In this document: in pieces, positions 20,206 through 33,011 of the stretch
Numbering within the stretch: the stretch's first letter is position 1
Layout of the letters: every line of letters starts with the position of its first letter
Source of the DNA: Candidatus Electrothrix communis
GTDB lineage: Bacteria; Desulfobacterota; Desulfobulbia; Desulfobulbales; Desulfobulbaceae
DNA: 64,000 nt
Direction of reading: 5' to 3'
NCBI GenBank assembly: GCA_030644725.1
Contig: CP130629.1
Location: 861,572-925,571, forward strand
Made by a program: the position numbers and the translations under genes
The notes under the pieces: generated by a model
What the model was told of the DNA's origin: nothing
The model's input: only the letters and a program-made list of their open reading frames with translations
The model's database searches: none

Positions 20206-21898
20206 GGGTGCGGCTCTTTTCATGCAAGCCTAACCGGTTATACCATCGACGGAACAGCATCACCGTTCGGTACCCAGCTATAGTTTCTGCACCTTTCCTT
20301 CCAAAAATGAAAACTCAGGTAATCTTTCAAATCACTGCTGGTTTTCAGCGCTCTCAATTTCAGCACGGCATCTGCTGATTTAAGCCGCCAACGAGCACCG
20401 GTGAGATCCATGCGATCCTTAACCAAGTGACGACAAGCTCCCTCTATTACACCGGTGGCTATAGGCAGTCCTTTTGAAAGAGCTTCTTCATATCTCAGGC
20501 GTTTCTGATTTTTCTCAATATAATTCGCAGCGGTATCCGAAGAAATACGTTCATTTTCGTCTAATCCTCTGCGTGTGGCCGCACGACGCAAACCGCTTGC
20601 CACACTTTGTGCGTTTCCTTTCAAAATTTCAAGCGTACGTCCACGCACCCACTCTTCTCGTCTTTCAACATTTTCTTTGCCCGAATAAAGCGCATGAGCA
20701 GATTTCCATAGGTATTCGACGACATGAATGAAATCCTGAATAACTGTTATTTTCACATCATACTTCTCCGCCTGCGCCTCGACCTGCCTGATCAAATCGG
20801 TCTGCCCGTCAATAAGAACCGCCCATTCCATTTTTTGCTCAGGATCCCGACGGAGTGCCTCCTGGAATCCTTGGTCAAGGGCACTTCCCATATCTTCCGT
20901 AATCTCCGCCCAAACCCGCTTGTTCTCAATCTTGGGTCGTAATGGTGAGCTTTCCTGGTCGATACCGAGGATTTGTTCAGGGGTTCGCTGATAAGGGGAT
21001 GTTTCATACACGGAGACAACAGTCGCCATCCGTTTTCTACCCTTTTTCTCTCCGGGTTGAAGGCGGGCTTTTTTCTTCCTTTGATCCTCTTCAGCCTGTT
21101 TTTTGGCGGCGGGTCGCAGATCCTGATTATGCATTGATACGCCTTTTCCGTCTGCTGTGATGACCAAAATATTGCCTTGTTTCGGGGACGATTCAAGGGG
21201 CTGCTCATAAAATTCTTTGAAATCCTGTACAATATCCGCAGATACATCCTGAAGTTGACGTTTGGGCAGCATCCCTCCTCCCTGCCGTTCCAGTGACTCC
21301 AATGTTTCGTCAAAAGAGGCGATAGCCGCCAGATGCGCTATTTCACTCCGCAGACCGTGTGAATACTTGTCGGGCGGCAAGTTTAACTCTGCATCCAGAG
21401 GAAAAACGCTGCCGACAAACTGCCCGTAATAACCGATTCGCGACAACTTAACCTCTCCAAAGCGTGATTCAATTTTTCGAGCAGAACCTGTCCTGCGACG
21501 ATTGCGACGGATACCATCTTCTCCGACAACGAATTCTTTTTTCACCTCTTCAGCAGTGCGTTGAGAAAGATATCCCTGTGCCAACAGTCGTAGAATTTCC
21601 TGCCCTTTTTTTTGAATAACTGCTTCCACGTCTCCAAAAGAGGCTTCGGAAAACCCTGCGCTTGATATGTAGGATGCGAGTTTATCAAGAGACTCAAACG
21701 ACGAAATATAATGCTCTCTATGACTTTCTGTAATGTGGCAAGGGTGGTACATGTTGAAACTCCAAAATGCTGAGTAAAAAATATTTTATATATTTTTACC
21801 GCATTGAAAGGAGCATTTCAAGCAAATAATACATAACTCAAAATTAAAGATTGACAACTTATCAATATGTTAAAATTAAATCAAAAGAGCCGCACCCT
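20206..21898 (-). mobile_element. ISKra4-family element, apparently complete
   Basis: A 1693-bp element with inverted ends GGGTGCGGCTCTTTT (20206) and AAAAGAGCCGCACCC (to 21898). The transposase frame is full length. I see no direct duplication at the flanks (AAGGAATA versus TTATCAAA). It separates the cytochrome start from whatever promoter lay upstream. Confidence 0.88.
20238..21752 (-). CDS. ISKra4-family transposase
   Basis: 504 residues, intact. Catalytic candidates: ITADGKGVSM, the second acidic site in WAVLIDGQTDL, and the strongly conserved C-terminal block ATGVIEGACRHLVKDRMDLTG-RW with the final Glu. This block is diagnostic of ISKra4 enzymes. This is one of the few intact transposases in the island, so the element may still move. 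Confidence 0.88.
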   Translation of the reverse strand: MYHPCHITESHREHYISSFESLDKLASYISSAGFSEASFGDVEAVIQKKGQEILRLLAQGYLSQRTAEEVKKEFVVGEDGIRRNRRRTGSARKIESRFGEVKLSRIGYYGQFVGSVFPLDAELNLPPDKYSHGLRSEIAHLAAIASFDETLESLERQGGGMLPKRQLQDVSADIVQDFKEFYEQPLESSPKQGNILVITADGKGVSMHNQDLRPAAKKQAEEDQRKKKARLQPGEKKGRKRMATVVSVYETSPYQRTPEQILGIDQESSPLRPKIENKRVWAEITEDMGSALDQGFQEALRRDPEQKMEWAVLIDGQTDLIRQVEAQAEKYDVKITVIQDFIHVVEYLWKSAHALYSGKENVERREEWVRGRTLEILKGNAQSVASGLRRAATRRGLDENERISSDTAANYIEKNQKRLRYEEALSKGLPIATGVIEGACRHLVKDRMDLTGARWRLKSADAVLKLRALKTSSDLKDYLSFHFWKERCRNYSWVPNGDAVPSMV

Positions 21899-22034: not shown

Positions 22035-22130
22035 GGGCTTGGTTCTAAGTTAGGCCAATTGATTTGCGATTGACACTCGGAGTAAAAATAAATCCATTAA
22101 ATCAATCAGTAAATTAGCCGCACAGGGCGG
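22035..22130. repeat. Truncated MITE, left half
   Basis: Starts GGGCTTGGTTCTAAGTT and continues about 70 bp with clear similarity to the complete MITE at 22449-22577 (GGCCAATTGATTT, then CATTAAATC), but diverged and without a right end. IS66 transposase sequence starts at about 22131. The 136 bp before it (21899-22034) show no gene. Confidence 0.6.
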
Positions 22131-23107
22131 AAATAAAGATCTGTCCGGGATACGGAACTGAAAATCGGGGTGAATTCCCGGAAAACGTCGAAAGGGGTGT
22201 TCGATACGGCACAGGGGTAAAGACATGGGCCGCGTATTTCGGAAATCAGCACCATATTCCGCTTGAACGCACCGCACAGATTATTGAAGACCTGACCCGG
22301 GCACGGAATTTCCGAGGGTTCGCTGCTCAAGGCGTCCGAAGAGCTTTCCGAGTGCGTTCGGCCCTCGACCGAGGCAACTGCGGAGCTTCTCCGTAATGCC
22401 GAGGTTCTGAATGCGGACGAAACCGGACTGCGGGTCAAAGGAAAACTCGGGCTTGGTTCTAAGTTCGGCCAATTGATTTACGCTTGGCACTCTCAATAAA
22501 AAAGATCATTAAATCTAAATTGTTATCATGCAGGTGCAGATTGTACTGGCAAGATGGCCGAAGTTAGAACCAAGCCCGAAAACTCCATTGGCTGCATGTC
22601 GCTTCATCGGACCTGCTCACTAATTATAACGTGCATGAAAAGCGCGGAAAAGAAGCGATGGATGCAGCCGGAATCCTCAGCGAATTCGAAGGCAAGATGG
22701 TGCATGATCACTTGAAATCGTACTTTGGATATAAAAATTGCCGTCATGGGCTATGCAACGCGCACCACCTTCGTGAGCTTGAATTCATAGGCAAGCAGTA
22801 TGAACAGGCATAGGCCGGAGACATGGCCGACCTGCTGCTTGAGATAAAAGAGGCGGTCGAAAAACTGAAGCCGGACCGGGACAGTTTTGGCTCGGAAGAT
22901 ATCGAAAGTTTCGAGCGAAGGTACGATGAAATAGTCTGCCGGGGCTTCGCGGACAATCCCTTCACTCCGCCGAAAGAGAAAAAAAGAGGCCGGGTGAAGA
23001 AAACCCCGCCGCTCAACCTTCTAACAAGGCTTCGGGATTACAAAGCGGAGACCCTCGCCTTCATGTACGATTTCCGGGTGCCGTTTGATAACAACGCAGC
23101 GGAAAGA
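22131..23107 (+). pseudogene. IS66 transposase, central part, decayed
   Basis: Homologous to the IS66 transposase at 25171-26325. Readable pieces in changing frames: GVRYGTGVKTWAAYFGNQHHIPLERTAQ-like, ADETGLRVKG, KMVHDHLKSYF with the second catalytic Asp, CNAHHLRELEFIGKQYEQA followed by a TAG, then LKPDRDSFGSEDIESFERRYDEIV and DNNAAERD. The 5' end is lost and the 3' end stops at AGAGATG where IS1182 starts (23108). It is interrupted by a MITE. Unlike the 25-kb copy it keeps the middle catalytic region. Its missing 3' end matches 7929-8177. Confidence 0.8.
22449..22577. mobile_element. MITE type 1, complete, 129 bp
   Basis: Inverted ends GGGCTTGGTTCTAAGTTCGG and its near-complement CCGAAGTTAGAACCAAGCCC. 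An exact 8-bp duplication GAAAACTC flanks it (22441-22448 and 22578-22585). Removing MITE plus one duplication restores IS66 coding sequence. No coding capacity. The same terminus ends the DUF6399-relative element at 33011, which suggests that element's transposase moved it. Confidence 0.92.
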
Positions 23108-25170: not shown

Positions 25171-26325
25171 ATGAATTTTAGTATCCCCGAAGAGAAAGAA
25201 GTCCGTACGGCCTTTGCGGAAGGTGAAGAGGCAATTATTGCCCTGTTCGGCAGTATAACCGCGCAGGTTAAAGAACTCGCCGCTCAGTTGGAAAAACAGG
25301 CCGGAGTATTGAAGGATTTACAGGCCCGGCTGTCGAAAAACAGCCGCAACAGCGGTAAACCGCCTTCAAGCGACGGATACGGTAAACAGAACAAGACGGA
25401 AAGCCTGAGAAAGTCTGGTCAAAAGTCGAACGGCGGGCAGCCGGGTCATGAAGGGCGGACTCTTAAGCGGTCGGAAAACCCAGATCATACGGAAACGTAT
25501 AAACCCGACACATGTGACAACTGCCAGACATCGCTTGAGGACGTCGCCGCCGTCGGAGAGGAAGAACGACAGGTTTATGATATTCCGGCGATACGAATCG
25601 AAGTCACCTCGCATCGTGCGGAAATCATAATTTGTCCCGAATGCGGCATGGAAAATACGGGAAAATTTCCGGAAAGTGTGGGACGGGGCGTTCGATACGG
25701 CAGAGGCGTGAAGACATGGGCCACGTATTTCGGGAATCAGCATCATATTCCGCTTGAACGCACTGCACAGATTTTTGAAGATCTGATCGGGCACGGAATT
25801 TCGGAGGGTTCGCTGCTGAAGGCATCTGAAGAACTTTCCGAGTGCGTCCGGCCCTCGACCGAGGCGACAGCGGAGCTTCTGCGTAATGCCGAGGTTCTGA
25901 AAGTGGACGAAACCGGACTGCGGGTCAAAGGAAAACTCCATTGGCTGCATGTAGCTTCGTCGGACCTCCTCACTCATTATAACGTGCATGAAAAGCGGGG
26001 AAAAGAAGCGGAAAAAAAGAAGGGACGACTGAAAAGACCGCCGCCGCTCAATCTGCTGATACGGCTCCGGGATTACAAGTCGGAGACTCTCGCCTTTATG
26101 TACGATTTTCGGGTTCCGTTCGACAATAATGCGGCGGAAAGGGATGTGCGTATGATGAAGGTCAAACAGAAGGTTTCGGGTTGTTTCCGAACTGTTGAAG
26201 GTGCGGAACGGTTCGCTTCTATCCGGGGATATATCTCCACGGCTCGTAAAAATTCAAAAAACATTTTCGAGGCGATTAAAGACGCCTTCAACGGCGATCC
26301 TTTTATTCCCGATGTCGCAGTATAA
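25171..26325 (+). CDS. IS66 transposase with in-frame loss of the central catalytic region
   Basis: 384 residues. Order: coiled-coil N-terminus (VKELAAQLEKQAGVLKDLQARL), SKNSRNSGKPPSSDG, GGQPGHEG, a zinc-finger-like CDNC...CPEC, the first Asp in KVDETGLRVKG, and the last Glu in DNNAAERDVRMMKVKQKVSG. After HEKRGKEA it jumps directly to EKKKGRLKRPPPLN. The remnant at 22131-23107 has roughly 100 residues between these points, including VHDHLKSYF with the second catalytic Asp and CNAHHLREL. The deletion is in frame, so a stable but catalytically dead protein could be made. Confidence 0.85.
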   Translation: MNFSIPEEKEVRTAFAEGEEAIIALFGSITAQVKELAAQLEKQAGVLKDLQARLSKNSRNSGKPPSSDGYGKQNKTESLRKSGQKSNGGQPGHEGRTLKRSENPDHTETYKPDTCDNCQTSLEDVAAVGEEERQVYDIPAIRIEVTSHRAEIIICPECGMENTGKFPESVGRGVRYGRGVKTWATYFGNQHHIPLERTAQIFEDLIGHGISEGSLLKASEELSECVRPSTEATAELLRNAEVLKVDETGLRVKGKLHWLHVASSDLLTHYNVHEKRGKEAEKKKGRLKRPPPLNLLIRLRDYKSETLAFMYDFRVPFDNNAAERDVRMMKVKQKVSGCFRTVEGAERFASIRGYISTARKNSKNIFEAIKDAFNGDPFIPDVAV

Positions 26326-27993: not shown

Positions 27994-28896
27994 TATTTTG
28001 CCAAAAGACGACTGGTCGTTTATCTACAAAGATAAAATTTGGCCTCTCATAGACGAAAACCAGTTCAAGCATCTTTATTCGAAAGAGGCCGGGGCACCGA
28101 ATATTTCAATCAAGCTGAAAGTATCCCTGCTCATTTTTATGGCTCTGGAACAACTCAACTGGCGGCAGGTTGAGTTTATGTTTATGCGCAGGATCGATTG
28201 GATCAATGCGACATATTCAGAATTTGGACAAGCCTTTATCGACCATACCACGTTATTCAAGTTTTATCAGCAAATCGAAGATGATAAAGCCACTTACCAA
28301 CTCCTTGTCGACCTCACCAATAACTTTATCAAAAGCTGTGGGGTTTCAAAGAAGAAACAGCGCGTTGATTCTTTTTCATGCTTGGATGGCTCGCGACACT
28401 TTCCCGTTATGGATTATTCAAGGAAACCATCAGGGGTTTCTTCAAGCACTACGAAAGCATAAGCCCGGACTGTATGCAGAGGTAAAAGACGAACTTTCCC
28501 TTGATTACCTACAGGATAATTTTGATTTAACAGAAAAGGATAAAGATAAGGCCAGAGGTCGAATCAAGGAAATGGCCAAGGATCTTTACCTGCTGAAAAC
28601 ATCTTTTGAACATCATCATCAAGTGGGCCATTACCAGACATTTAAGACATTAGCCCAAGTGTTTGATCAGCAGTGTGCTGTTAAATCTGAAAATGACCTT
28701 TCTTCTTCTCCTGCTGATGTTGACTCTGACAAAGAACTCGTTGAAGCTGCAAGGAATACCGCTCCGGTTGACTCTGAAGAGGAAATATCGTCTGGCAACA
28801 TGACACCTGCTGATGAATCAGCTGACAGTACAAAAAATATTGTTCCTGCTGAACCTGAGATAGAAATACGGGCGAAGCCGGTGGGTGATAAAATCA
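27994..28896 (+). pseudogene. IS1182 transposase, N-terminal/middle part, frameshifted
   Basis: Continues the gene begun at 23261: PKDDWSFIYKDKIWPLIDE, SIKLKVSLLIFMALEQLNWRQVE, then a frame change near 28380 (LSRYGLFKETIRGF in the third frame) and again near 28440 (LQALRKHKPGLYAEVKDEL). It ends at KPVGDKIR where a DUF6399 IS end (28897) cuts it. In IS1182 proteins only about 20 residues separate this point from GFVTETCDPDNK, where the fragment at 8346-9086 starts, so the two are probably halves of one gene. Confidence 0.8.
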
Positions 28897-29470
28897 GGCT
28901 ACCAACTTAAGCCGGGACAGAAAGTAAATTCAAAGGGTTACTCTTGACATGTTTTCTCGGCTTACGAGGCAGGGGCAACTCGCCCACTTGGTGCAGCAAC
29001 CATTCAAATAAGTCCGGTGGCTTTTCACCAAACAATCGTTGCGCTGCTGTACTGCCATCTGAGCGTTTTGTGAAATAATTATGCATAACGGTAAGCGATT
29101 TGAGACGATTTGAATTCAATCCTCTATTATTATGATGAATTTGTGACAAGAATCCGTTACGTCCTTCGACAGCAGAGGAAGCTCGATGAAATTTTCCCAC
29201 CATTTCCTCGGCCCAATTTTGCCAAAAGAAAATCTCATCCTCGCTAAATGTTCCAGTCAAGGCATGCGCCTGAAAGACGACCAAAGCTTTTTCCCATACT
29301 TTTTCATATTCTTTTCGAAGGGTTGGGTTCTTAGTTTTTCATGCCTGATTGTACCAATACACCGTAGGCAAAAGATGGTACATTGCCCAATCCAGCAGTT
29401 CCTTGCTCCTCTTTCCCAGCCCTATCAGGTTAGTGAACACATACAACCACCAAAAATCAATTGATGGGAC
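28897..29470 (-). mobile_element. DUF6399-type IS, copy C, 3' fragment
   Basis: Right terminus GGCTACCAACTTAAGCC at 28897, encoding the last 125 residues of orf2 on the minus strand. An A-to-T change turns AGA into TGA near 29341 (QARKT to QA-stop), so it is dead. It is cut at 29470 by copy D. No flank duplication is recoverable. Confidence 0.88.
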
Positions 29471-29616
29471 GGGTACCAACTTAAGCCGGGACAAAATGAA
29501 CCTCGTCCCAAAAAATCATAACCTGAAATATCGTTTTTGATTGCCAGAAGTCTATGAAAAATAAGTTTATTGAAAAAATACTTTAACTGCTCGTAAAAAA
29601 ATAGCATATTTCCGTT

Positions 29617-30429
29617 ATGAAAGCATTAACGGAAAAAATACGATCTATCGGTGGCAGAGTTTTTGCGGCTCTGGGGAAGTCAGACAAGCTTACCTACGAA
29701 CAACTGGCAAAAGAAGCGAATACAAGCAAAAGTAGTGCGTTTCGACAAGTTAAAGGAATTCAAAGAAGAAATATCTATCCCGAATCTGTTTTGTGGGAAC
29801 ATGAAGAGGGGTATGAGTGGATTCGCAGGCATTTTTTTGCCACCTTGTTGATATTCGGTGTGCAACATGGAATAGGAGCGGACACCCTTTCCGAATATTT
29901 CAAGGTGCTTCGACTCGACACGCATATCGGGGTATCACCCACGCCTATACGAACCAGACTCTCTCAGCTTCAGGATGCAATTATCAGGTTTCAAAAAGAA
30001 GTTGAACAAAATTATAAAGATGTATTCAAAGAGGTGATCGGTGCGGCGGACGAAACATTTTTCTGCAATGCACTCATTCTGGTATTTATGGACCTGTCAT
30101 CGGGTTATTTAATTTTAGAGGATGTCGCTGATGACAGAAGTTTTGATACCTGGTTTAAAATGTTGGAACCACGCCTTGAGGAGTTAGGTGTACACGTTCA
30201 GCTGATGGTATCTGATCGAGCTAAAGCGTTAATAAAGTTGGCTGTGGTCGGGCTTAAATGTGATCACAACGCTGATATTTTTCACGGCTTGCACGATATC
30301 AGTAAATGGATGAGCTCAACTTTAGGCCGCCGTAAGAGCACGACGAAAAGACAGTTGGATAAGTGCGAGTCAAGTCTTGAAAAAGCTGAAAAAGAGGAGC
30401 AAACAAAAAAATTGTGGCCTCCAAAGTGA
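29617..30429 (+). CDS. DUF6399 IS orf1 (copy D), intact
   Basis: 270 residues. A helix-turn-helix-like N-terminus (residues about 20-50, LTYEQLAKEANTSKSSAFRQ), a middle region, and the first two acidic catalytic candidates in GAADETFF and MVSDRAKALIKL. It ends ...EEQTKKLWPPK. The last 16 bases overlap the orf2 frame. The codons ACA AAA AAA TTG place A AAA AAA in the slippery register, and slipping back one base continues into IVASKVKQVEEA. The related single-frame protein at 31369-32817 shows what the fused product looks like. Confidence 0.85.
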   Translation: MKALTEKIRSIGGRVFAALGKSDKLTYEQLAKEANTSKSSAFRQVKGIQRRNIYPESVLWEHEEGYEWIRRHFFATLLIFGVQHGIGADTLSEYFKVLRLDTHIGVSPTPIRTRLSQLQDAIIRFQKEVEQNYKDVFKEVIGAADETFFCNALILVFMDLSSGYLILEDVADDRSFDTWFKMLEPRLEELGVHVQLMVSDRAKALIKLAVVGLKCDHNADIFHGLHDISKWMSSTLGRRKSTTKRQLDKCESSLEKAEKEEQTKKLWPPK

Positions 30430-31389
30430 AGCAGGTCGAAGAAGCACGGGCTCAAGACCAAAAAGCCACGCAAGATCTGGATAACTACCGTGGAACAATA
30501 AGGAAAATATCAAAAACGGTGCATCCGTTCAAACTGGACGACAATAAACCGCAAGATTCTGCAAACGTTGCAAAAGAGCTGCGAGAGCAAGCCAAGAATA
30601 TTGAAACGCTGGCCTGCAAAACAAGGGCTACCAGCTTAAGCCGGGACAAAAGTTCGGGTTCTGAAGTCTCCGAATTCGGCAAAAGCCCCCGCTATGAACA
30701 GTTTGCGACGGTTTACGCAATTGCCTGATTTTGCAAGCTGTCCCGCCTTAAGTTGGTAGCCCAAACAAGGTATTAACGACAATACCGGCGTTATGAAGAA
30801 ATTTAAGAATCAAATAAAAGAATTGGTCCCATCAATTGATTTTTGGTGGTTGTATGTGTTCACTAACCTGATAGGGCTGGGAAAGAGGAGCAAGGAACTG
30901 CTGGATTGGGCAATGTACCATCTTTTGCCTACGGTGTATTGGTACAATCAGGCAAGAAAAACTAAGAACCCAACCCTTCGAAAAGAATATGAAAAAGTAT
31001 GGGAAAAAGCTTTGGTCGTCTTTCAGGCGCATGCCTTGACTGGAACATTTAGCGCGGATGAGATTTTCTTTTGGCAAAATTGGGCCGAGGAAATGGTGGG
31101 AAAATTTCATCGAGCTTCCTCTGCTGTCGAAGGACGTAACGGATTCTTGTCACAAATTCATCATAATAATAGAGGATTGAATTCAAATCGTCTCAAATCG
31201 CTTACCGTTATGCATAATTATTTCACAAAACGCTCAGATGGCAGTACAGCAGCGCAACGATTGTTTGGTGAAAAGCCACCGGACTTATTTGAATGGTTGC
31301 TGCACCAAGTGGGCGAGTTGCCCCTGCCTCGTAAGCCGAGAAAACATGTCAAGAGTAACCCTTTGAATTTACTTTCTGTCCCGGCTTAA
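30414..31389 (+). pseudogene. DUF6399 IS orf2 (copy D), interrupted by a MITE
   Basis: Begins VASKVKQVEEARAQDQ and reads to ETLACK, where the MITE at 30626-30761 enters. It resumes at NTGVMKKFKNQIKELVPSIDFWW and runs to SVPA. One residue in the TFSEDEIFF region is changed to Ala (TFSADEIFF). With the MITE removed the frame would also need one extra A in the left duplication corrected. Confidence 0.85.
30626..30761. mobile_element. MITE type 2, 136 bp, with DUF6399 IS ends
   Basis: Ends GGCTACCAGCTTAAGCCGGG and TCCCGCCTTAAGTTGGTAGCC-like inverted repeats, each within 1-2 bases of the host IS ends. Flanked by CAAAACAAG (30617-30625) and CAAACAAG (30762-30769), an 8-bp duplication with one A added. 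The interior has no similarity to the IS coding region that I can see. Confidence 0.9.
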
Positions 31390-32817
31390 GTTGGTAGCCT
31401 TTCTTGGGTTAGCACTTTGTATCAGTGATTCCGTTTTTTCCGGATTGATCCCTGATATAAACCCGTTGTGTTGATTGATAATTGAAAGTAGTTTGGCTGA
31501 TTGCTGTTGAATCAGCTCCCTTCTGACCTTATCCTTTTCTTTTTCCGCAACGAAAGAGAGATAGAAACCGGGAATCAGTCGATCCTTCAGTAGTATTTCT
31601 TCTTCACCGGAAAAATTCATATTTTCGAGATATTGATCCACCATTGTCCAAAAGAAGGCTATGGTGGAAACTAAATTGGCCACAACCTTATACGCTTTTT
31701 CAACACGATTGCGGCATTTCCCGGAAAGATCGGCTGCCGCTTTATTTATTTCGGAAAAGCAGGAGTCTAGGAGGCTCTCCACCGTAGAAGGATCCTGCCT
31801 TTCTCCTGTTGTGGGATCATAGGGGTGATAAATATGCCCGATCCTCTTTCTCGCCGCACGGATGGTTTCCTGGTTTTCACGAGCTTTCAGCAGTTCCGCC
31901 TCCGCACTTTCTCTTTGTTTTTCAGCAAGGTTAACCTTTTTTTCAAAACCCGGTCTCCTGCCTCTCGGGCGACGCTCCCGTGAATCGTAACGATGCATTT
32001 CTTCTTTTATTTTATCTACTTGCTTCCCTGACGATTGAAAAGCTTTTTCCGCTCTTCTGATCTTCGAAGCAAGCGGCCCGGAAGTCCCTTTTCCTATATC
32101 GTGAGATACATGAAAAATATCCGACGAATGATGAACCCCGAGCCTTTTTTTAACATGATTCAGTAAGCCGCTGCCTTGATCACTGGTAACCTGAATCACC
32201 TTGACCGGTAGGCTGGAAAGTGCATCTTTAACTGATGTGTCCCAAGTTTCCCCCTTTCTGTTTTCGGCGTATTTTTCCAAAAGTATATAGTTTGACACCG
32301 GTTCCATAGCAACAAGGCATATCTCTGGATGGAAAGTTTCATCTTCCGCCAAGGTGATTGCCTTTGGCGGCATTTGAGTCGCGAGGCGATCATGTTCAGA
32401 CTTGCCAAATCGTATCAACTCATTATCCATTTTGTTTGAGATTCTACGCTGAGTTGCATATGAACTTCCGATAAACGGAGCAAGTCCGCACGCTTTAAGG
32501 AAATTACTGACATTGTGAATGCTTGCCACCCCAACCTTGGTAAATTCTAAATGAGCGACGGTTACCAGTCTGTGCAAAAAAGCCACCCCGTCCGGGCTTT
32601 CAAAGAAATCAATGAGAGCCGGAGAGGCATCAATATTCTCTTTACGTTTGAGCCAATATTGAAGCGTAGTTCTTGGAATCTTTTCCTTTTGGGCAAACTG
32701 CCGTTGACTTTGTCGACCTCTTTCCTCTTCAAATTCACATATCTTTATCGAGGAATGAAGCCGGTTGTGATTATTTCCTCTTACTTTATCTGGAGAAATT
32801 TGATATTGTGTGGTCAT
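31369..32817 (-). CDS. DUF6399-related transposase, single frame, C-terminus truncated
   Basis: 482 residues in one frame from MTTQYQISPDKVRGN. It aligns with fused orf1+orf2 of the other copies: AEDETFHPE (first acidic site), QVTSDQGSGLLNHVKKRLGVHHSSDIFHVSHDIGKG (second), then a long coiled coil (EKKVNLAEKQRESAEAELLKARENQE) where the others have their frame switch, and IAFFWTMVDQY for the WWLYVFTN region. The last nine residues (ATNLSRDRK) come from the end of copy D at 31399, so the DUF6399 C-terminus with the third catalytic residue is missing. Confidence 0.8.
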   Translation of the reverse strand: MTTQYQISPDKVRGNNHNRLHSSIKICEFEEERGRQSQRQFAQKEKIPRTTLQYWLKRKENIDASPALIDFFESPDGVAFLHRLVTVAHLEFTKVGVASIHNVSNFLKACGLAPFIGSSYATQRRISNKMDNELIRFGKSEHDRLATQMPPKAITLAEDETFHPEICLVAMEPVSNYILLEKYAENRKGETWDTSVKDALSSLPVKVIQVTSDQGSGLLNHVKKRLGVHHSSDIFHVSHDIGKGTSGPLASKIRRAEKAFQSSGKQVDKIKEEMHRYDSRERRPRGRRPGFEKKVNLAEKQRESAEAELLKARENQETIRAARKRIGHIYHPYDPTTGERQDPSTVESLLDSCFSEINKAAADLSGKCRNRVEKAYKVVANLVSTIAFFWTMVDQYLENMNFSGEEEILLKDRLIPGFYLSFVAEKEKDKVRRELIQQQSAKLLSIINQHNGFISGINPEKTESLIQSANPRKATNLSRDRK

Positions 32818-33011
32818 AGCTGCTTGTTTTTGTTGGTTTGTTCTTTGGTTGGAAAAAACCTAATACAAAATCAAGCAGCTTTCATCTATCTTATTCTTCT
32901 AAAAAAATATTTTTCTTTCCCACAGGTCACTTTCTCCAAAAAATAGAAAGCTCCAAGAGGATTGAGCTGTGCTTTGGCAGTACAAAATTGGCCGAACTTA
33001 GAACCAAGCCC
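31400..33011 (-). mobile_element. DUF6399 subfamily 2 IS, 3' truncated
   Basis: The 5' end of the element is at 33011, reading GGGCTTGGTTCTAAGTTCGG on the minus strand. This is the same terminus as the type 1 MITEs at 22035 and 22449. The other end is lost to copy D. About 170 bp of untranslated leader lies between the terminus and the start codon at 32817. It sits 16 bp after the stop of the PEP-binding gene. Confidence 0.82.

What the first reader, a model, noticed from the sequence alone, without database searches (positions are those of the whole stretch)
22449..22577. MITE type 1 shares its ends with the DUF6399 subfamily 2 element
A 129-bp element with TIR GGGCTTGGTTCTAAGTTCGG and TSD GAAAACTC. 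The same terminus is at 22035 (diverged half copy) and at 33011, the 5' end of the element encoding the single-frame transposase (31369-32817). So the likely mobiliser is 10 kb away. The divergent half copy suggests more than one wave of movement.
Basis: partly seen in the sequence, partly recalled or inferred. Interest (0 to 1): 0.6.

Follow-up and report, generated by a model that had tools for sequence, protein, structure and literature searches.

The report
Small hitchhiking DNA transposon (MITE)
This is a 129-base piece of 'hitchhiker' mobile DNA that carries only the end sequences of a larger jumping element and has spread through the genomes of a bacterial genus; the larger copy 10 kb away that was thought to move it is broken.

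Summary
Window 22449-22577 is a 129-bp element with 23-bp inverted ends (one mismatch) and a perfect 8-bp duplication. An IS66 gene copy at 25788-26010 shows the same site empty (207/223 identical after removing the element and one GAAAACTC). The own genome holds 11 full copies of 129-131 bp; with six related genomes there are 22 (129-138 bp), of which 16 have an 8-bp duplication with at most one mismatch. It is a MITE family.

Its ends match those of the DUF6399 'subfamily 2' element. A whole 1934-bp element in another genus of the family carries a 558-aa DUF6399 protein between these ends, and the right end adjoins the 3' end of this gene in four genomes.

The proposed mobiliser 10 kb away is dead: ORF 31369-32817 lacks the last 88 residues, with the invariant glutamate, cut off by another DUF6399 element's end. 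No intact subfamily-2 gene was found in this genome, although five MITE copies are 98-100% identical. The mobiliser was probably lost or broken since.

A new family of a known kind; DUF6399 itself looks like an unnamed insertion-sequence family.

The parts
22449..22577 (+). MITE, 129 bp (copy G000 884020-884148)
   Evidence: TIRs and TSD; empty site
22441..22448 (.). target site duplication GAAAACTC, left copy
22578..22585 (.). target site duplication GAAAACTC, right copy
22449..22471 (+). left TIR, G at position 15
22555..22577 (-). right TIR, C at position 15
22035..22129 (+). truncated MITE copy of an older subgroup (TTAGG type), ending near the junction with an IS66 fragment; right limit approximate
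25788..26010 (+). IS66 transposase paralogue carrying the empty MITE target site (single GAAAACTC at 25931-25938)
31400..33011 (-). truncated DUF6399 subfamily-2 element: intact left TIR at 32989-33011, right part and right TIR missing
31369..32817 (-). ORF of 482 aa: 472 aa of subfamily-2 transposase (62-63% to the intact 558-aa protein) plus about 10 aa read from the neighbouring element's end
29471..31399 (+). DUF6399 subfamily-1 element with different ends (GGSTACCAACTTAAGCCGGGACA) that truncates the subfamily-2 element; carries its own 136-bp MITE at 30626-30761

Best explanation
22449-22577 is a copy of a non-autonomous, cut-and-paste-type MITE. SHOWN: 23-bp near-perfect inverted ends, 8-bp target duplication, an empty target site, and 11 full copies of near-constant length in the genome. 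The ends and the duplication length match those of a DUF6399-type insertion sequence ('subfamily 2'): an intact 1934-bp copy in another genus has these ends flanking one 558-aa gene, and a distant plasmid relative has an 8-bp duplication. INFERRED: a subfamily-2 transposase, acting in trans, bound the MITE ends and inserted the MITE into AT-rich 8-bp targets. In this genome the spread went on until recently (five copies at 98-100%), but every subfamily-2 gene found here is now truncated, so the source has been lost or broken. The copy 10 kb away is one of those dead relatives.
For: Own-genome pattern search: 29 ends, 0 control. Of 22 full short copies in 7 genomes, 14 have a perfect 8-bp duplication and 2 have one mismatch; the two 383/388-bp relatives are perfect. 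Empty site 207/223. MITE 4542534 splits an ORF that reads 399 aa once it and one duplication are removed in silico. Intact element L165: TIRs at 1-23 and 1912-1934 around an ORF at 229-1905 with a DUF6399 match at E 1.1e-39. The right TIR follows the 3' end of subfamily-2 genes in G013, G003, G005 and L195. The element's left 26 bp are identical in seven MITE copies; the G013 element's right 35 bp match MITE 940206 at 91%. The Thiodictyon plasmid DUF6399 element has TIR GGCCTTGATCATAAATCCGG and TSD GTCCAACC, better than shuffles. No intact subfamily-2 gene in this genome.
Against: 6 of 22 full copies lack an 8-bp duplication. The MITE interior does not match the intact element beyond the ends, so descent by internal deletion is not shown. 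The window MITE itself matches the element's right subterminal 14 bp at only 7/14. The intact element lies at a contig edge, so its own duplication could not be tested. No movement was observed. The mobiliser of the recent burst was not found in the assembly (completeness 95.69%).
Confidence: 0.86

Rival explanations
1. The co-resident, apparently intact subfamily-1 DUF6399 transposases cross-mobilise this MITE, which would explain recent copies without a subfamily-2 source.
For: Subfamily 1 is abundant: 15 DUF6399 hits, one intact 542-aa ORF read at 2917470-2919254, and it also makes 8-bp duplications (2 of 3 copies checked).
Against: Its ends (GGSTACCAACTTAAGCCGGGACA) agree with the MITE ends at only about 10 of 23 positions (counted by eye), and it has its own 136-bp MITE family with its own ends.
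Confidence: 0.08
2. The truncated 472-aa protein 10 kb away still works in trans.
For: One open frame through the DETF motif and the second conserved aspartate.
Against: It ends before the VEGRN block whose E is present in all 5 other aligned proteins; the element lacks its right end.
Confidence: 0.03
3. It is not a mobile element but a structured RNA gene or regulatory hairpin repeat.
For: The whole element folds strongly as RNA (z -7.55); Rfam lists two miRNA hairpin families at E 0.003 and 0.25, both far below their gathering scores.
Against: The fold comes from the TIRs: the interior alone has z +0.53. Duplications and the empty site show insertion.
Confidence: 0.01

Closest known systems
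MITEAba12 / ISAba12 (Acinetobacter; PMC6382973, passages read)
   Same: Short element (111-114 bp there) with TIRs matching a coresident insertion sequence and a fixed duplication length; many copies without duplication (40% had one there, 16 of 22 here).
   Different: 9-bp duplications, a different transposase, and an intact parent in the same strain; here no intact parent was found in the genome.
DUF6399 (Pfam PF19936) elements
   Same: The intact subfamily-2 protein matches PF19936 at E 1.1e-39; 8-bp duplications in subfamily 1 and in the Thiodictyon plasmid element.
   Different: The MITE has no gene. Pfam calls the domain 'unknown function', and no NCBIfam family matched the 558-aa protein at E up to 1.
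IS66 family
   Same: The MITE is inserted in an IS66 transposase gene fragment; 8-bp duplications are also recalled for IS66 (from memory).
   Different: The MITE interrupts that gene and is flanked by IS66 gene sequence, not by IS66 ends; its ends belong with DUF6399 genes.

Membership tests
MITE (non-autonomous TIR element) | Short, no transposase gene, terminal inverted repeats | tested here: met
   129 bp, 23-bp ends with 1 mismatch
MITE (non-autonomous TIR element) | Target site duplication of fixed length | tested here: met
   8 bp; 14 of 22 perfect, 2 with one mismatch, 6 without
MITE (non-autonomous TIR element) | Multiple copies of near-constant length | tested here: met
   11 copies of 129-131 bp in the own genome; 22 copies of 129-138 bp in 7 genomes
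MITE (non-autonomous TIR element) | Ends shared with an autonomous element | tested here: met
   Intact 1934-bp element L165, same family, other genus
MITE (non-autonomous TIR element) | Moves in trans by that transposase | not testable with these tools
   needs an assay
MITE of type I (internal deletion of the parent) | Interior derived from the parent element | tested here: not met
   no match of the window MITE to the intact element over more than 35 bp; only ends and a few subterminal bases agree
DUF6399 insertion sequence, subfamily 2 (window 31400-33011) | Full gene with C-terminal DUF6399 domain and both TIRs | tested here: not met
   C-terminus and right TIR missing; no Pfam match
DDE transposase (DUF6399) | Conserved acidic triad | tested here: inconclusive
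   D159 and D213 invariant in 6 aligned proteins, E484 in the 5 that reach that far; roles inferred; the model of the core was low confidence (mean pLDDT 54.3)

The most novel reading that the evidence does not exclude
DUF6399 proteins are the transposases of a so far unnamed insertion-sequence family with 8-bp target duplications and two-block ends (about bases 1-12 and 16-23). The two ends are kept unequal at bases 13-15: position 15 differs in 25 of 26 end pairs, the intact G013 element differs at 14 instead, and the distant Thiodictyon element at 13-15. Each of two subfamilies in one genome supports its own roughly 130-bp MITE family, and the type-1 MITE outlived its own transposase gene in this genome. 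The unequal bases would mark left from right for the transposase or prevent a perfect hairpin.
Probability: 0.4. Interest if true: 0.45.

Novelty: new member of a known kind. Interest (0 to 1): 0.33.

Why it matters
It ties a Pfam family of unknown function to mobile-element ends and a duplication length, and so gives DUF6399 a testable role as a transposase. It also gives a case in which a recent MITE burst is recorded in a genome where only broken copies of the matching transposase were found, with two subfamilies and two MITE families side by side for testing end specificity.

Tried and rejected
Unrelated transposase between the same ends: the 1754-bp G003 element (L166) looked like one. 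Its bases 1-47 and 1421-1754 match the 383- and 388-bp type, and a roughly 1370-bp stretch with its own inverted ends sits between (inner ends read by eye), so it is a nested insertion. Rejected as a rival.

Structure of the DUF6399 protein: AlphaFold2 on a 5-row alignment gave mean pLDDT 54.3, with residues 137-247 below 50. Too weak for a fold search, so none was run.

Viral contigs: no relative of the 558-aa protein. A paralogous empty site for MITE 4542534: none in the own genome. Ends of the Crinalium and Acaryochloris DUF6399 plasmid genes: no end pair better than shuffles, so 1 of 3 plasmid elements tested gave clear ends. H4 (Acaryochloris, 33% coverage) was not fetched, and H5 (Methylomonas) was fetched but its ends were not tested.

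Single ends not counted as full copies, own genome: 661795, 883606, 894563, 927991, 1206064, 3314792, 4391383. Single-end hits in G003, G005, G007 and G013 were likewise left out of the 22. G028's one hit with 2 mismatches was not analysed further. G042's C-terminal fragment has an end-like sequence with 4 mismatches and was not counted among the four genomes with a right end. G010 and G033 fragments showed no such end within 5 mismatches in the stretches fetched.

The end asymmetry at position 15 was looked at as possible selection for unequal ends. Most of the copies share descent, and the commoner changes (G to A, C to T) cannot make the ends equal, so it is not proof.

Literature: 0 papers hold 'DUF6399'; 0 hold both 'miniature inverted-repeat transposable' and 'Desulfobulbaceae'; some searches gave general or neighbouring papers. 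ISfinder could not be searched.

Full report
WHAT WAS CHECKED. The window lies in a 4,845,585-base single-contig genome (G000, window = C1:861572-925571). Names are not given. A same-family genome, G013, holds the contig JAOTSI010000001.1, 'Desulfobulbaceae bacterium' (same 40,716-base contig). A same-genus genome, G007, is one contig of 5,089,909 bases, which fits the 5.09 Mbp reported for Candidatus Electrothrix scaldis (PMC10926707, passages). That the window comes from a cable bacterium is my inference only.

THE ELEMENT. The 20-bp terminus is found at 22035 (+), 22449 (+), 22558-22577 (-) and 32992-33011 (-), none expected by chance. The element 22449-22577 is flanked by GAAAACTC on both sides. 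It interrupts an IS66 transposase gene fragment. A second IS66 gene copy in the window has the same site empty: removing the MITE and one GAAAACTC from 22298-22657 gives 223 bases that align without a gap to 25788-26010, 207 identical.

THE FAMILY. The own-genome search with up to 3 mismatches gave 29 ends and 0 for the reversed control. They form 11 full copies of 129-131 bp. Relatives: 8 of 145 genomes (own included) hold the 23-bp pattern with up to 2 mismatches, 5 of the 7 other same-genus genomes among them. Among the 22 full short copies that I assembled (11 own, 11 from G003, G004, G005, G006, G007 and G013), 14 have a perfect 8-bp duplication, 2 have one mismatch, 6 have none. Two larger elements of 383 and 388 bp in G007 and G004 have the same ends and perfect 8-bp duplications. 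These 16 perfect duplications are 70% A+T, with T in 13 of 16 at base 7 and C in 10 of 16 at base 8.

AGE. Five own-genome copies (771693, 940206, 1510253, 4219135, 4542534) are 98-100% identical; 2681693 is 90-91% to them; 395346 and 635862 form a second group (95%), to which the half copy at 22035 belongs (90-92%); the window copy is 71-77% to the other full own-genome copies except 3815012 (57%). So there were at least two episodes. MITE 4542534 splits a reading frame that reads 399 aa, a group II intron reverse transcriptase by its look, when the MITE and one duplication are removed (protein named by eye). Insertion there was therefore into a once-open gene.

THE PARTNER TRANSPOSASE. L165 (G013:C370) has a single 558-aa ORF at 229-1905, the left end at 1-23 (2 mismatches to the pattern, at the contig's first base) and the right end at 1912-1934, exact. 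The protein matches Pfam DUF6399 at 410-553, E 1.1e-39, and is 62% identical to the window ORF. Two further contigs of G013 begin inside the 3' part of the same element, which suggests at least three copies there. The right end also follows the 3' end of diverged genes of this subfamily in G003, G005 and in L195, a Deltaproteobacteria MAG. The left end precedes the gene in three own-genome copies: the window, 4391383 and 1206064. A distant relative on a Candidatus Thiodictyon plasmid (38%) has ends GGCCTTGATCATAAATCCGG / GGCCTTGATCATCGTTCCGG and an 8/8 duplication, score 25 against at most 20 in 20 shuffles; the Crinalium and Acaryochloris relatives gave nothing above shuffles.

WHY THE NEARBY COPY IS NOT THE MOBILISER. 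The window ORF aligns to residues 1-470 of 558 and then runs into the end of a subfamily-1 DUF6399 element at 31399. It lacks the block with E484, present in all 5 other proteins of the alignment. The other own-genome copies match over 318 aa with a stop, and over 69 aa. All 15 DUF6399-domain hits in the own genome score 192-201 bits, against 136 for the subfamily-2 protein; those looked at are subfamily 1, and the full subfamily-2 protein found no subfamily-2 C-terminus in the own genome. At 1122983 another subfamily-1 end cuts a subfamily-2 remnant about 18 bases away from the equivalent point.

WHAT THE MITE TOOK FROM THE ELEMENT. The element's first 26 bases are identical in seven MITE copies, and the G013 element's last 35 bases match MITE 940206 at 91%. 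Inside the 23-bp end, the right-hand 14 bases agree with the element at 9 or more positions in 12 of 22 copies (a random window 14-mer does so with P 0.004; the copies are related, so these are not 12 independent cases), but the window copy has only 7. The rest of the interior does not match. The MITE may be built from the ends only, or come from a relative not yet seen.

END ASYMMETRY. In 25 of 26 end pairs (22 short copies, 383, 388 and 1754 bp, and the intact element) the two ends differ at position 15, mostly G against C. Other positions differ 0-5 times. The intact element differs at 4 and 14 instead. In three copies (3815012, G005, G007) the interior is inverted relative to this mark. 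The Thiodictyon ends differ at 13-15. Shared descent explains much of this; a role in telling left from right is a guess.

MECHANISM. Most likely a DDE-type transposase of the DUF6399 subfamily binds both ends and inserts the MITE with an 8-bp staggered cut. The ends, duplication and empty site are shown; trans-action, the DDE chemistry and loss of the source are inferred. The RNA fold of the whole element is strong only because of the ends (interior z +0.53).

NOVELTY. MITEs with shared parent ends are well known; MITEAba12 is a close parallel (PMC6382973, passages). New here are this family and the link of DUF6399 to such ends. No paper in the held library contains 'DUF6399', and no NCBIfam model matched the 558-aa protein at E up to 1.

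Noticed in passing
window 28896-31400: Subfamily-1 DUF6399 element (29471-31399) beside an inverted 575-bp partial copy; it carries its own 136-bp MITE (30626-30761) with ends GGCTACCAGCTTAAGCCGGGACA. 44 such ends (up to 3 mismatches) in the genome; the whole elements looked at have GGC at one end and GGG at the other.
   Followed up: partly
G000 872027-873809 and similar copies: Several similar subfamily-1 copies have the transposase split over two or three frames, while 2917470-2919254 has one 542-aa frame: either programmed frameshifting or the spread of broken copies.
   Followed up: no
window 31399 and G000 1122983: Two subfamily-1 ends join diverged subfamily-2 remnants only about 18 bases apart in the subfamily-2 sequence.
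   Followed up: partly
G000 927991 and G003 C1:2261695: Both keep just the first 50 bp of the subfamily-2 left end, followed by different sequences.
   Followed up: partly
L168 and L169 (388 and 383 bp): These longer non-autonomous elements hold an inner second pair of end-like sequences (AATTTCTAAGTTCGGCCA...), as if one element sat inside another (by eye).
   Followed up: no
window 20238-21752: ISKra4-family transposase, 504 aa, NCBIfam E 4.7e-91.
   Followed up: no
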